From contig CALWVN010000013.1 in NCBI GenBank assembly GCA_944384995.1, positions 1 through 48,978 of the forward strand: DNA of 48,978 bases. Direction: 5' to 3'. Within the stretch, counting starts at the first letter, position 1; each line of letters begins with the position of its first letter. The DNA is from an uncultured Clostridia bacterium. GTDB taxonomy: Bacteria; Bacillota; Clostridia; Oscillospirales; Acutalibacteraceae. The notes beneath the pieces are model-generated. The model was not told where the DNA came from and searched no databases. It worked only from the letters and a program-made list of their open reading frames with translations. This document shows, piece by piece, positions 4,485 through 32,464 of the stretch. The translations under genes and the position numbers were made by a program.

Positions 4485-6175
4485 TGCTCAAGGGAATCGG
4501 AGCGTCCGAGGGCGTCGGTATCGGCAAGGCGCGTAAGCTTTTAGAAAAGCCGATCGTGTATACGGACAAAGCGCCGGCGGATACGGCGGCGGAAAAAGAG
4601 CGCCTGCGCTCGGCGGTACAGACCTTTTGCGAAAAAAATGAAGCGCGCGCCGCGCGCATGGATGCGTGCGGTGCGGACGGCGACATTCTGCGCGGGCACA
4701 TCGCCATGCTTTCAGACCCTTACATGCTCTCGCAAATGCAGGAGAGTATCGAAACCGGCGTGTGCGCGGAAAAAGCGGTGGAAACGGTCTGCGATATGTT
4801 TATCGCGGTGTTCTCCGGCACGGACGATGAGCTGACACAGCAGCGTGCCGTGGATGTGGCGGACATCAAAAAGCAGCTGCAAAAAATATTGCTCGGTATC
4901 GAAGATATGGATCTCGGCTGCCTGCCGCCGGATACGGTGCTGATCGTGGAAGAGCTGACGCCGTCCATGACCGTCGAGCTCGACCGGGAAAACGTGGCGG
5001 GGATCGTCACGGAACGCGGGGGCAGGACCTCACACGCAGCGATCCTTTCCCGCTCGCTGAAAATTCCTGCGGTACTCAGCGTGGAAAATGCACTCACGCT
5101 GATCCCATCGGAAAAGGAACTGATCGTAGACGGCGGTACGGGCGAGGTCTATACCGACATCGACGACGCGACAAAAGCACGCTTCTTGGAAGTGCAAAAG
5201 CGTTTTGCCGAAAAGGCCGCGCGCGAGGAGACTTATCGCGGGAAACCTACCGCCACAAAGGACGGCGTGCCGAAAAAGCTGTATGCCAACATCGGCTCGC
5301 ATAAGGATCTGGAGGCGGTGCTCGCAAGCGACGCGGAGGGTGTCGGGCTGTTCCGCACCGAGTTCCTGTTCATGGACAGAGCCGCTATGCCGACCGAAGA
5401 AGAACAGTTTGAAGCGTACAAGGCGGTCGCCGCAGGCCTGCACGGCAAGGAAGTCATCATCCGCACGCTGGACGTCGGCGGGGATAAAGACATCCCATAC
5501 CTCAACCTCAAGCACGAGGAAAACCCGTTTTTGGGGTTCCGTGCGGTGCGGTACTGCCTGAAAAACCGCGATGCATACAAGGTGCAGCTTCGCGCAATTT
5601 TACGTGCCTCGGCATTCGGCAACGTCGCCGTTATGGTGCCGCTGGTGACGCGCGTGGACGAACTGCTTGCAGTGCGCGCACTGGTGGAGGAGATCAAAGC
5701 GGAGCTGGATACACAAAATATCCCGTATAAAAAGGATATACAGATCGGCGTGATGATGGAGACGCCCGCCGCCTGCATGATCGCGGATCTGCTGGCGGCG
5801 CACGCGGACTTTTTCAGCATCGGCACCAATGACCTGACGGGGTACATCATGGCGGCGGACCGCGGCAACGCGGATGTCGGGTATCTGTATTCGACGTTTG
5901 ACCCGGCGGTGCTGCGCGCGATCAAGCGGATCATCGCCGCCGCAAACGACCGCGGGATCCCCTGCGGGATGTGCGGCGAAGCGGCAGCCGACCCACACCT
6001 TTTGCCGCTGCTCGTGTCGTTCGGTCTGGACGAATGCAGCGTCAATCCCGCAAGCGTCCTTTCGGTGCGCAGCACGCTCGCCGAACTCGACCGAAAGACC
6101 TGCGATGCGATCGCGCAAAAGGCGCTCTCTTTAGAGAGCGAAGCGGAGGTTTCCGCCTATCTCACATCGCTGTAA
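4484..6175 (+). CDS. ptsI: PTS Enzyme I, phosphoenolpyruvate-protein phosphotransferase
   Basis: Starts the PTS relay by taking phosphate from phosphoenolpyruvate and giving it to HPr. Length (563 residues) is close to the family norm. The phosphorylated His184 lies in GGRTSHAAILSRSL. The C-terminal PEP-binding barrel shows FRTEFLFMDR, GANDLT-like GTNDLTGYIMAADRGN and the conserved Cys motif GIPCGMCGEAA near residue 500. It is the last gene of the operon; a large stem-loop follows 28 bases after the stop. Confidence 0.96.
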   Translation: MLKGIGASEGVGIGKARKLLEKPIVYTDKAPADTAAEKERLRSAVQTFCEKNEARAARMDACGADGDILRGHIAMLSDPYMLSQMQESIETGVCAEKAVETVCDMFIAVFSGTDDELTQQRAVDVADIKKQLQKILLGIEDMDLGCLPPDTVLIVEELTPSMTVELDRENVAGIVTERGGRTSHAAILSRSLKIPAVLSVENALTLIPSEKELIVDGGTGEVYTDIDDATKARFLEVQKRFAEKAAREETYRGKPTATKDGVPKKLYANIGSHKDLEAVLASDAEGVGLFRTEFLFMDRAAMPTEEEQFEAYKAVAAGLHGKEVIIRTLDVGGDKDIPYLNLKHEENPFLGFRAVRYCLKNRDAYKVQLRAILRASAFGNVAVMVPLVTRVDELLAVRALVEEIKAELDTQNIPYKKDIQIGVMMETPAACMIADLLAAHADFFSIGTNDLTGYIMAADRGNADVGYLYSTFDPAVLRAIKRIIAAANDRGIPCGMCGEAAADPHLLPLLVSFGLDECSVNPASVLSVRSTLAELDRKTCDAIAQKALSLESEAEVSAYLTSL

Positions 6176-29458: not shown

Positions 29459-29537
29459 ACTAATTGCGGCCTCCTTTGCATATATGTGAAATGTGGGACT
29501 TGCCCCACAAGTTATCGCCGGAAAGTTGGAATTTTAT

Positions 29538-30437
29538 ATGTCGGTCGAGTACGAACCCTTTACTTACCCATATGCCAAGCGGCTTTGCGCGCAGCTGCTG
29601 AACAAGTATCCGTTTGCCGCCGTTTCGGTGCTCGGCAGGACGGTCTCGAAGCGCGCGATCTTTGCGCTGTCTGCGGGCGATGCGTCCGGAGAATCGGTGC
29701 TGTTCGTATCGGGGCTTTCCGGTGCGGACGGTGTGCAGAGTCTGCTTTTATACCGCTTCTTTGAGCGGATCTGCCATGCGACGGCGCACGACGGCACACT
29801 TTGCGGCGTAAAGCTGCGAAAGTCCCTGCGCGGCAGGCGCGTGGTGATCGTGCCGTGCTTGAACCCGGACGCGCCGGAGATCCGCCGGGCTGGCCCCTTA
29901 GGCGCGGGAACTTACGCGGGTATGGTGAGCCGCGCGGGCACGGAGGATTATTCGCACTGGTGCGCCAATGCGCGCGGGGTACATATCGAACACAATTTTG
30001 CCTTCTGCCATACGCCGTACCCGTTTCAGACGGTCGGCGCACAGACCGACGGGGAAACGGTGTATGCGGGCCCCGCCCCAGAAAGCGAAGCGGAAACGCA
30101 GGCGCTCGTGCGCCTGTGCCGCAGCACGCCGTTCCGGCACGGCATTTTGCTGCACGGCACGGGCGGGCGCATTTTCGGGAGCACGCCCGTCTCGCCCGCG
30201 ACAAGCGATGATGTGCCGTTAATGGCGCGCATCCTTGCCGCGGCGGGGGAATATACCCTGTCTGCAAAAACGCCGCCGCTTTCCTGCGGGAGCTTTCCCG
30301 AATGGTTTTCCGCCGACTGCGGCGCACCCGCATTTGAGCTGTCCGCCGTGCGCGCCGCCGAGCCGGAAACACAGGCGGAGTTTGACGCGCTTTGGCAAGA
30401 GACGCAGGAGGTCCTGCTGCTGTCGGCGATGCTGTAA
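29538..30437 (+). CDS. M14-family (MpaA-like) carboxypeptidase homologue lacking two zinc ligands
   Basis: The protein (299 residues) aligns along its length with gamma-D-glutamyl-L-diamino-acid peptidases that trim cell-wall peptides: VSVLGRTVSKRAIFAL, VVIVPCLNPDAPEI, DYSHWCANARGVHIEHNF, ILLHGTGG and a C-terminal FELSA. The zinc motif expected as HGxEW reads SGLSGADG, so the His and Glu ligands are Ser and Asp. DLNxNF has become HIEHNF. The third His (LLHG) and the catalytic Glu (FELS) remain. It is probably a non-catalytic binding protein or has changed chemistry. No signal peptide. The ATG at 29538 is preferred over 29493, for which no ribosome site is seen. It ends four bases from the ubiquitin-like gene, tail to tail. 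Confidence 0.75.
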   Translation: MSVEYEPFTYPYAKRLCAQLLNKYPFAAVSVLGRTVSKRAIFALSAGDASGESVLFVSGLSGADGVQSLLLYRFFERICHATAHDGTLCGVKLRKSLRGRRVVIVPCLNPDAPEIRRAGPLGAGTYAGMVSRAGTEDYSHWCANARGVHIEHNFAFCHTPYPFQTVGAQTDGETVYAGPAPESEAETQALVRLCRSTPFRHGILLHGTGGRIFGSTPVSPATSDDVPLMARILAAAGEYTLSAKTPPLSCGSFPEWFSADCGAPAFELSAVRAAEPETQAEFDALWQETQEVLLLSAML

Positions 30438-30441
30438 AACG

Positions 30442-31158
30442 CTATGCAGCCTCGACAGTGTAAATCAATGTGGTGTGATATGTCCCGACGGGGACGGCGT
30501 CCCAGGCTGCCTGTGCGACCGAAAAGGTGACGGCGGCGGAAGCCTGCACGCCGTCTGTTACGGCAGGGAAGGTTTGGCTGGCATTTGTCAGCGCGGAATA
30601 CGCGATCCCCGCGTAGTCCGCTGCCTGGGCTTCTGCATTTGTGAACAGCCGTTCGCCTTCCGGCGCGACCGACACAGACAGCTGCTGCCCGATCGCGAGT
30701 GCCGTCTCTACCGCATAGCTCGCATCAATGGGATCGGTCGTGCCCCACGCGACCGAAAAATCGGCGGGGATGGACGCGATATAAGATATGTCCGTTTCCG
30801 AAAAGGTTGTGACCACCTGTGTGTCCGCCGTGGCGGGGCTGCCGTCCTCGATCGTTACGGTATAGCTTTGTTCGGGGCTTACCAAATGCAGGGTGCTGCC
30901 TTTCAAAATGGCATAATCCTGTAAGGTGTGGCCGCCCTCTAAGTGCTTCCCTGCAAAAATCAAGGTCTGGTTTTCTGCGGGGATGCCCTCTTTTTCTTCA
31001 ATCATTGCCTTGACGGCATCAATTGTGTCCGTCGGCTCGACCTCCAGCATGATATGCTTGCCGGTCAGCGTTTTCACAAGGATCTGCATGGCAAAGGCGG
31101 GCACGCACAGCGCATATAGCAGTACGGCGGTCAATAGAAAACTGAGCAGCTTTTTCAT
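30442..31158 (-). CDS. Secreted protein with N-terminal ubiquitin domain
   Basis: A 238-residue precursor. Residues 1-23 are a clear signal peptide ([18 protein letters not shown], then VPAFA). Cleavage after AFA would leave Met-Gln as the new N-terminus, exactly like ubiquitin. Residues 24-93 read [19 protein letters not shown]... and match eukaryotic ubiquitin at 50 of 70 positions by my own count. Six of the seven ubiquitin lysines (6, 11, 27, 33, 48, 63) and the L8-I44-V70 patch are kept. The LRLRGG tail is absent (SPEQSY instead), so it should not be conjugated. Residues 94-238 form a Thr/Ser/Ala-rich beta-type domain ([38 protein letters not shown]) like those of surface proteins. There is no sorting motif. 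Its AAGGAGG site abuts the murD-type stop, ten bases away. Confidence 0.93.
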
Positions 31159-31168
31159 AGCGTCCTCC

Positions 31169-32464
31169 TTATTTGTCCGCGTATTGTTTGACAAGCGATT
31201 TGAAATGTCGTCCCTTTTCCTCAAAGTTTTTATAAACATTATAGCTTGATGCGGCGGGGGAGAGCAGACAGCTTTTCCCCGCTGCGGTATATCGGTACGC
31301 AAGGCGTACCGCCTCGTCGAGATCGGCGGCGGTGACAGCGTTCTTTTCGGGATTCAGCGCTTGCACGGCGCGCACAATGGAAAAGCCCGTTTCGGGTGTG
31401 CCAATGATGTTTTGGATACCGCTTTCAGCGAGCGCTTTGTCAAATCCCGCATAGGAGATGCCGCGGTCCATGCCGCCGACGATGAGCGTATCCACGCTGC
31501 CGATCGCCTCGACCGCACACAGCACAGCGTGCGGGATGGTGGCGATGCAGTCGTTGTAAAAGGTGATTCCCCGAAACGTGCCGACCTTTTCCATGCGGTG
31601 CTCGATGCCCGCAAAGCTCTGCACGGCGCGTTCGACCTGTTCGTCCGTCACGCCGAACCGCTTGGCGGCGGCGCGGGCAAACAGCACGTCCTGACGGTTG
31701 TGCCGCCCGGCGAGGTGTTCGTTTGTGATAGCAAAAGGCAAGGCGTCGTCCGCGCGGATCCCCAGCTTTTCGGCAGACGTGCCGGCAATGCCCTCGAACG
31801 CGTCCAAGCCCTGATCCGCGTTGTAAATGAGCAGATCGCCCGCTTTCTGGTAGAGCGCGATGTGTGACTTTGCGCGCGCGTAGCCCGCAAACCCGCCGCG
31901 GTAATGCTCCAAATGTTCCTCGTACAGATTCGTGATCACGGCGACCTCGGGGGAGGCGTGCGTGAATTCCAGCTGGTGCGACGACATTTCGATGACGGCG
32001 ATGCTGTCTTTTGTGACTTCCTCGAGCGCCTCAAACACGGGCACCCCGATGTTGCCGATCAGGCGGCTGTCCTTTCCCGCCGCAGTCAGACACAGGTGTA
32101 TGAGCGTCGAGGTCGTGGTCTTGCCCTTCGAGCCGGTGATGCCGACCTTGCGGCAGGGCGCGAAGCGCAGGAACAGGTCGACCTGGCAGGTGATCTCGGC
32201 ATGCCCCGTATCCCGGACATCCTTGAACGAAATGCCGGGGCTTTTGAGCACCACGTCGTAATCGGCAAGGTGCGAAAGATAATCCGCGCCGCTGAAAACG
32301 ACAACATGCGGGTCATTCACGGACACGGGATTTTTGTCGGCAACAGCAATTTCCTTTTCGGGGAAAAAACGGCGGATATAGCGGTAGGAGGACTGCCCCT
32401 CGCGCCCGAAGCCGACGAGCAGCACGGTCTTGTTTTGCAGGTATTCAGCGATCGGCGGCAACAA
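31169..32464 (-). CDS. MurD-type UDP-MurNAc-L-Ala:glutamate ligase (MurD2-like)
   Basis: Mur ligase of 431 residues that adds glutamate to UDP-MurNAc-L-alanine. The N-terminal Rossmann part has [12 protein letters not shown]. The ATP loop is [13 protein letters not shown] at 108-120, and later [41 protein letters not shown] and [19 protein letters not shown] follow. The start is a TTG at 32464 with AAGGAG ten bases before it. It overlaps the MurL-like gene by 20 bases. In Xanthomonas the pair MurD2-MurL adds L-Glu and then epimerises it to D-Glu, bypassing glutamate racemase; the overlap argues for the same pair here. Whether it takes L- or D-Glu cannot be seen directly. Confidence 0.88.

What the first reader, a model, noticed from the sequence alone, without database searches (positions are those of the whole stretch)
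30442..31158. Secreted bacterial ubiquitin fused to a surface-type domain
Seen: after a signal peptide the mature protein starts Met-Gln and matches human ubiquitin at 50 of 70 positions (hand comparison with the ubiquitin sequence from memory). It keeps Lys 6, 11, 27, 33, 48 and 63 and the L8-I44-V70 patch, but SPEQSY replaces LRLRGG. A 145-residue beta-type domain follows. Known: Bacteroides fragilis secretes a ubiquitin homologue acquired from a eukaryote. Inference: this is an independent or related transfer into a Gram-positive gut bacterium. Without RGG it cannot be conjugated, so it probably binds ubiquitin-recognising proteins of the host, or acts against rival bacteria as a decoy.
Basis: partly seen in the sequence, partly recalled or inferred. 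Interest (0 to 1): 0.97.

Follow-up and report, generated by a model that had tools for sequence, protein, structure and literature searches.

The report
Exported ubiquitin on bacterial surface proteins
A bacterium of the clostridial class carries a gene for an exported protein whose tip is a copy of ubiquitin, a protein best known from animal, plant and fungal cells, joined to a bacterial surface-type domain, and many other bacterial genomes carry the same export-signal-plus-ubiquitin layout, so ubiquitin seems to have been reused as an outward-facing bacterial domain.

Summary
Confirmed: minus strand, window 31158-30442, 238 aa: signal peptide (AFA|M), ubiquitin domain (50/70 identical to human; Pfam 79.7 bits), then 145 aa. 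Not a contaminant: it lies 10 bp after murD, with orthologues at the same locus in four other genomes of the genus (5 of 39 with the window). Not unique: of 80 ubiquitin loci kept from 84,980 bacterial and archaeal genomes, 73 put a signal-peptidase-like site exactly before ubiquitin Met1, ahead of barrels, S-layer domains, sorting tails or short tails. The window's ubiquitin belongs to one supported bacterial lineage (26 rows). Its C-terminal part is an unnamed domain that also forms a tandem array of small exported proteins near a giant protein and a membrane-anchored partner, laid out like WxL clusters. Best reading: ubiquitin is the exposed head of a wall-associated subunit and binds an unknown extracellular partner. 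Conjugation is excluded on sequence (no LRLRGG). Host-receptor mimicry is disfavoured: the I44 patch is more variable than the other surface here. Antibacterial action (as BfUbb) stays open. Against function: two orthologues lack the in-frame ATG, one genome keeps a remnant, and in close pairs ubiquitin changes faster than its partner domain. No structure was obtained.

The parts
30442..31158 (-). Complete gene: signal peptide + ubiquitin domain + 145-aa C-terminal domain (238 aa, ATG start, stop at 30442-30444)
   Evidence: orthologues
31090..31158 (-). Sec-type signal peptide, residues 1-23, ending AFA just before ubiquitin Met1
   Evidence: sequence; 73 of 80 related loci have a site at the same place, 0 of 80 when the site is moved 1-8 residues downstream and 10-41 of 80 when moved upstream. 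Rule of hydrophobicity and small residues at -3/-1, not SignalP
30880..31089 (-). Ubiquitin domain, residues 24-93 (ubiquitin positions 1-70)
   Evidence: Pfam PF00240 E 1.3e-22; 50/70 identical to human
30862..30879 (-). SPEQSY in place of the conjugation tail LRLRGG (ubiquitin positions 71-76)
30445..30879 (-). C-terminal domain (145 aa), homologous to an array of small exported proteins elsewhere in the same genome; no Pfam or NCBIfam family over its cut-off
31164..31169 (-). Shine-Dalgarno-like AGGAGG, 5 nt before the ATG, sharing its first base with the murD stop codon
   Evidence: sequence
31169..32464 (-). murD (name by reading), 10 nt upstream on the same strand; co-transcription likely but not tested
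   Evidence: a match in 39 of 39 genus genomes
29493..30437 (+). Convergent neighbour (M14-peptidase-like by reading, not tested in Pfam); follows murD at 7-52 nt in five genus genomes that lack the ubiquitin gene there

Best explanation
The protein is exported by the Sec pathway and cleaved just before ubiquitin Met1, so ubiquitin becomes the free N-terminal head. The C-terminal domain ties it to the cell envelope: the same domain makes up a tandem array of small exported proteins and the C-terminus of a giant exported protein, next to a partner with a C-terminal membrane segment, the layout of the WxL small/large/anchor clusters. Ubiquitin is thus the exchangeable ligand-facing head of a wall-associated subunit. 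It is not conjugated (no LRLRGG) and does not depend on the canonical I44 patch; it binds some extracellular partner (host, protist or other bacterium) through another face. Shown: export-signal layout, domain homology, synteny, lineage, loss of the tail, variability of the patch. Inferred: cleavage, wall attachment, display and binding.
For: Signal-peptide-like site exactly before Ub Met1 in 73 of 80 loci, 0 of 80 at +1 to +8; among the 8 NZ_ (strain) records of those 80, 7 show it. C-terminal parts of 10 of the 80 scanned in Pfam: autotransporter barrel in 3, S-layer homology in 2, a secretion-system sorting tail in 1, none of these in 4. C-terminal domain: 5 further places in the own genome at E<=1, all in one array of 7 small proteins; the 1,848-aa protein upstream ends in it. 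The fusion lies among such proteins in R. albus 7 plasmid pRUMAL01, G141 and Ruminococcus RUG12221; these three fusions are reached by a second, broader profile (E 7.7e-14, 8.6e-10, 2.1e-12 in a small custom set), the first profile did not report the R. albus one. The membrane-anchored partner is alike in three clusters (65.2 and 34.4 bits). All 5 genus genomes with the ubiquitin gene also have other matches to the domain, against 15 of 34 without it (chance about 0.027 by my arithmetic, not corrected for kinship). Ub is more conserved than the C-terminal domain in distant pairs: 69 vs 54% (window-G235), 57 vs 39% (window-G200). dN/dS of Ub 0.11-0.24 in nine of ten pairs, the tenth having dS 0.
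Against: No structure or localisation data. In the two close pairs the relation is reversed: Ub 74% vs C-terminal domain 83% identical (window-G223, window-G236), so the head changes faster than its carrier there. In the window genus the gene lies at murD, not inside the array. Pfam WxL does not hit the own genome. In G235 and G236 no ATG is in frame at the expected start, and G201 keeps only the start and last part of the gene: decay or dispensability in part of the genus. dS is near saturation in distant pairs. The Ub part of G223 and G236 is 99% identical in DNA with dS 0 while their C-terminal part is 91% with dS 0.305, so exchange confounds rates.
Confidence: 0.5

Rival explanations
1. 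Interbacterial weapon: like Bacteroides fragilis BfUbb, the exported ubiquitin inhibits competing bacteria, with the C-terminal domain holding it at the surface for contact or release.
For: BfUbb, a signal-peptide ubiquitin cleaved just before Met1 and lacking the terminal glycine, inhibits other B. fragilis strains, and the synthetic protein is active (PMC5705921, abstract and discussion read). A genome of the same family (G093) has four tandem ORFs with a bacteriocin-type double-glycine leader, three of them over the Pfam ubiquitin cut-off, and one C39-peptidase match of the exporter kind. Fast change of the head in close pairs would suit an arms race.
Against: The window form is fused to a surface-type domain, BfUbb is free; several carriers are environmental by name. 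The lack of an obvious immunity gene nearby says little, since BfUbb too is thought not to need one. No activity data for any fused form.
Confidence: 0.22
2. Host mimicry or decoy: displayed ubiquitin engages host ubiquitin-binding proteins, deubiquitinases or extracellular-ubiquitin receptors.
For: The window copy keeps L8, I44, H68, V70 and six lysines; roles of extracellular ubiquitin are reviewed in PMC10892293 (passages read). Bacterial ubiquitins outside the lineage keep the patch (variability 0.131 vs 0.185 for other surface).
Against: Within the five genus orthologues only 1 of 8 patch positions is invariant against 19 of 48 other and 11 of 14 core positions (position sets recalled); in the H12/Q57 lineage the patch is more variable than the rest of the surface (0.411 vs 0.204, permutation p 0.02); F4 is Leu in the window; carriers include free-living bacteria by name.
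Confidence: 0.1
3. Inert stable cap: ubiquitin's rigid fold serves only as a protease-resistant N-terminal spacer on surface proteins and binds nothing specific.
For: Core is the best kept part (11 of 14 invariant) while surface drifts; diverse C-terminal parts and repeated use; gene loss and altered starts in relatives.
Against: Of the surface positions tested (9-27 and 36-70), nine never vary in 26 lineage sequences: 12 and 57 (which define the group), 20, G47, D58, Y59, K63, S65 and T66; some may be kept for the fold.
Confidence: 0.18

Closest known systems
BfUbb (ubb) of Bacteroides fragilis
   Same: Signal sequence placed so that the mature protein starts at ubiquitin Met1; ubiquitin 63% identical to human (48 of 76; window 50 of 70); no terminal Gly-Gly (PMC3352274, PMC5705921)
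   Different: BfUbb is a free 76-aa protein with a C-terminal cysteine in a Bacteroidota; the window protein carries a 145-aa surface-type domain. The BfUbb sequence was not in hand for the tree, so its place relative to the window's lineage is unknown.
RUMAL_RS21475 'ubiquitin family protein' of Ruminococcus albus 7 (plasmid pRUMAL01)
   Same: Signal peptide + ubiquitin + a C-terminal domain of the same family by the second profile (E 7.7e-14), among other such proteins
   Different: Ubiquitin of the other (T12, N60) type; plasmid-borne; the record gives only a family name and ontology terms of electronic origin
WxL protein clusters of Gram-positive bacteria
   Same: Small exported domain-only proteins, a large protein with the same domain at its C-terminus, and a membrane-anchored partner (PMC10599100, abstract read)
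   Different: No Pfam WxL match in the own genome; the partner has no DUF916/DUF3324 match listed in Pfam
Bacterial ubiquitin-like conjugation operons and Pup (recalled)
   Same: Beta-grasp proteins or protein tags in bacteria
   Different: Those are cytoplasmic conjugation systems; here there is an export signal and no C-terminal glycines. An E2 search of the own genome found none, but its control rang nowhere, so this shows little

Membership tests
Ubiquitin family (Pfam PF00240) | Profile match over the curated cut-off | tested here: met
   79.7 bits against 25.4
Conjugatable ubiquitin | C-terminal LRLRGG ending | tested here: not met
   SPEQSY followed by 139 residues; 7 of 80 relatives keep LRLRGG, 4 of these with the signal-peptide layout
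Secreted bacterial ubiquitin (BfUbb type) | Signal peptide ending directly before ubiquitin Met1 | tested here: met
   AFA|MQ in sequence and the 73 of 80 rule; cleavage itself not measured
Secreted bacterial ubiquitin (BfUbb type) | Free 76-aa mature protein | tested here: not met
   145 further residues after position 70
Secreted bacterial ubiquitin (BfUbb type) | Antibacterial activity | not testable with these tools
   needs protein
WxL proteins | Pfam WxL domain match | tested here: not met
   no match at E<=1 in the own genome; the control rang in Lactococcus lactis
WxL proteins | Cluster layout: small, large and membrane-anchored members | tested here: met
   own genome C8 has all three kinds; in G141 and R. 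albus small members and the anchored partner were seen, a large member was not looked for (works like, not member of)
WxL proteins | Peptidoglycan binding | not testable with these tools
   needs protein

The most novel reading that the evidence does not exclude
Bacteria of many phyla share an undescribed class of envelope proteins in which a signal-peptidase site is placed exactly before ubiquitin Met1, so that ubiquitin is displayed as the outermost head on whatever anchor the lineage uses; in some Clostridia it has become a ligand-binding head of a new WxL-like surface array, with its classical recognition patch released from constraint and a new binding face around D58/K63/S65 fixed.
Probability: 0.42. 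Interest if true: 0.9.

Novelty: new variant of a known kind. Interest (0 to 1): 0.74.

Why it matters
Ubiquitin is textbook eukaryotic; one exported bacterial copy (BfUbb) is described, and its authors call B. fragilis one of a few bacteria with such a protein. Here 73 of 80 kept loci follow one design rule with several kinds of C-terminal anchor, seven of them strain records, and Ruminococcus albus 7 has one on a plasmid, so the role of extracellular bacterial ubiquitin becomes testable in a cultured organism. Antibodies or proteomics that treat ubiquitin in gut samples as host protein might also pick up bacterial copies.

Tried and rejected
Eukaryotic contamination or chimera: rejected; bacterial flanks, a Shine-Dalgarno-like site, codon adaptation 0.641 (second lowest but inside the range of 12 neighbours, 0.616-0.774, which were also the reference set; GC3 0.678 vs 0.665-0.773), and syntenic orthologues.

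Phage or plasmid origin of the window copy: phages no match; plasmids 2 records. Eight viral-collection contigs encode ubiquitin, 5 of 8 with the signal-peptide layout; I found no link to this locus.

WxL membership: no Pfam match. A Pfam or NCBIfam name for the C-terminal domain: none over cut-off. The second PF00240 hit in the own genome (C7) is below the cut-off and partly a lysine-rich stretch; I do not take it for ubiquitin.

Literature: nine searches; I saw the listed rows only (20 of 8,030; 15 of 15; 1; 4; 0; 8 of 48, this one about WxL; 25 of 53; 15 of 215; 3). No listed title was about surface-anchored bacterial ubiquitin other than BfUbb. Most subscription papers are not held.

A search of the order of G621 (Bacteroidales by record title) for a BfUbb-like copy hit 5 of 393 genomes, 3 over cut-off; I did not inspect these further and BfUbb was not in hand.

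Bias to note: the 80 loci are the best of 368 relatives among 534 stretches found with patterns MQI[FL]VKTL and [AT][KM]I[QE][DE]KEG, so positions 1-8 and 28-35 are conserved by the search; those were left out of the variability test. Record labels of assembled genomes may be misbinned (for example Nomurabacteria L046, or L079 with undetermined residues). E-values refer to small custom sets.

Full report
OBSERVATION. The gene is at window 31158-30442 on the minus strand: 238 aa = 23-aa signal peptide ending AFA, 70 ubiquitin residues (50/70 identical to human; Pfam PF00240 79.7 bits), then 145 residues with no Pfam or NCBIfam family over cut-off. The ATG follows AGGAGG by 5 nt; the motif shares a base with the murD stop codon, and murD ends 10 nt upstream on the same strand.

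NOT AN ARTEFACT. In the genus, 5 of 39 genomes encode a full-length homologue (window; G223 and G236 82%, G235 60%, G200 45% identical). In all five it lies between murD and the same convergent gene. I examined the 30 murD loci returned out of 39: five have the gene; G201 keeps only its first codons and its last part; in five (G228, G234, G233, G226, G232) the convergent gene follows murD at 7-52 nt; in the other 19 that gene lies further off, or the NUDIX gene comes first, or neither was found within 1.5 kb. Codon use is inside the range of the neighbours, near its low end.

A CLASS, NOT A ONE-OFF. A scan of a collection of 84,980 bacterial and archaeal genomes gave 534 pattern stretches and 368 relatives, of which the best 80 were kept. 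In 73 of 80 a signal-peptide-like site (hydrophobic core plus small residues at -3 and -1) falls exactly before ubiquitin Met1; moving the assumed site by +1 to +8 gives 0 of 80, by -1 to -8 gives 10 to 41. What follows differs: of ten proteins scanned, three have an autotransporter barrel, two S-layer homology domains, one a secretion-system sorting tail, four none of these; others end in sorting-like motifs or short hydrophobic tails by eye. Seven of 80 keep LRLRGG, four of them with the signal-peptide layout; one of these, Dyella sp. OK004, would export an otherwise native free ubiquitin. Seven of the eight strain (NZ_) records fit the rule, so binning error is not the whole cause. Eight carriers searched whole had one copy each, but G015, G245 and RUG13820 have two. 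Over the Pfam cut-off, carriers are 11 of 200 genomes sampled in the family (not all of this layout), 5 of 391 in the class (the window included), and 3 of 393 in the order of G621.

LINEAGE. In a tree of 91 distinct ubiquitin sequences the 26 rows with H12 and Q57, the window and its orthologues among them, lie on one side of a branch with 99/97 support, and 98/96 when those two columns are left out; there are only 70 or 68 columns, bootstraps had not settled, and the root is unknown. The rows are labelled Clostridia, Bacilli, Erysipelotrichaceae and Alphaproteobacteria, plus one Nomurabacteria bin that may be misplaced. Sources are mostly not told; three names point to mouse or rabbit gut (caecimuris, iMGMC, Lapin; my reading of the names). 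So the window copy looks like a diverged member of a bacterial lineage that has moved between phyla, not a recent catch from a host.

THE C-TERMINAL DOMAIN. It hits five other places in the own genome at E<=1, all in a tandem array of seven exported 150-162-aa proteins at G000:C8 5.9-9.5 kb; a 1,848-aa protein just upstream ends in the same domain, and a 317-aa protein with a C-terminal membrane segment follows. In the genus 20 of 39 genomes have matches to the window protein at E<=1e-5; the five ubiquitin carriers each have further matches to the domain. In R. albus 7 (plasmid pRUMAL01), G141 and Ruminococcus RUG12221 a signal-peptide-ubiquitin-domain gene sits among such proteins (the fusions' own domains were reached by a second profile), and the membrane-anchored partner is alike in the own genome, G141 and R. 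albus (65.2 and 34.4 bits). This is the layout of WxL clusters (PMC10599100, abstract) without a Pfam WxL match.

WHICH SURFACE IS KEPT. In the five genus orthologues 1 of 8 I44-patch positions is invariant, 11 of 14 core and 19 of 48 other positions (position sets recalled from ubiquitin structure work). Over the 26-row lineage mean variability is 0.411 for the patch, 0.089 core, 0.204 other surface (20,000 permutations, p 0.02, one of two groups tested and uncorrected); in 57 sequences outside the lineage the patch is not more variable (0.131 vs 0.185). Ubiquitin is more conserved than the C-terminal domain in the distant pairs (69 vs 54%, 57 vs 39% with the window) but less in the close ones (74 vs 83% for window-G223 and window-G236). 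G223 and G236 share a signal-peptide-ubiquitin part that is 99-100% identical in DNA, with dS 0 in ubiquitin, but differ in the C-terminal part (91%, dS 0.305), which suggests exchange of the head by recombination.

MECHANISM. Shown: export-signal layout, head position, homology of the tail domain, loss of the conjugation tail, weak constraint on the classical patch. Inferred: cleavage, wall attachment through the tail domain, and binding of an unknown partner by another face. Rivals are BfUbb-like antagonism, host decoy and inert cap. Against all functional readings: in G235 and G236 no in-frame ATG stands at the expected start and G201 has a remnant, so the gene is being lost in parts of the genus, or those assemblies have errors.

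NOVELTY. The nearest described thing is BfUbb (read: abstracts of PMC5705921 and PMC3352274, the discussion and some passages of the former, part 1 of 2 of the results of the latter), whose authors speak of a few bacteria with a eukaryotic-like ubiquitin. Nine paper searches listed no account of other surface-anchored bacterial ubiquitins (listed rows only). I rate it a new variant of a known kind, with the class-level rule as the more novel part.

Noticed in passing
L025 (G093:C22) 4497-6003, minus strand: Four tandem ORFs (103-123 aa) with a shared bacteriocin-like double-glycine leader (LSEEELELVIGG) followed by ubiquitin-like domains, three over the Pfam cut-off, two ending in MMRLRG/LLRLMG; the genome has one C39-peptidase match in a 722-aa frame, of the exporter kind. 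Possible ubiquitin-like bacteriocins.
   Followed up: partly
L085 6001-6228: Dyella sp. OK004 encodes signal peptide + full ubiquitin ending in LRLRGG stop: a potentially conjugatable exported ubiquitin.
   Followed up: no
L126 292-10536 (own genome, contig C8): Unnamed surface-type system: a 1,848-aa protein, seven small exported proteins of one domain family, and a membrane-anchored protein with an NGEDVT motif; no Pfam family over cut-off for the giant, the anchored one or the small one scanned.
   Followed up: partly
L156 (G201), just after murD: Remnant of the ubiquitin gene: first codons of the signal peptide run in frame into the last ~40 residues, ubiquitin missing.
   Followed up: partly
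L148 and L149 (G236, G235): Orthologues in which no in-frame ATG stands at the expected start; decay, unusual start, slippage or assembly error not distinguished.
   Followed up: partly
L114-L116, L118, L119: Viral-collection contigs carrying signal peptide + ubiquitin with a short IPTL/PEP-CTERM-like tail (by eye) or a ~490-aa protein; may be misassigned bacterial DNA.
   Followed up: no
L018, L019 (G015): Two giant exported proteins (1,693- and 1,154-aa frames) in one genome, each headed by a ubiquitin followed by LRLKG or LRLGG and then by GLUG-like repeats (by eye).
   Followed up: no
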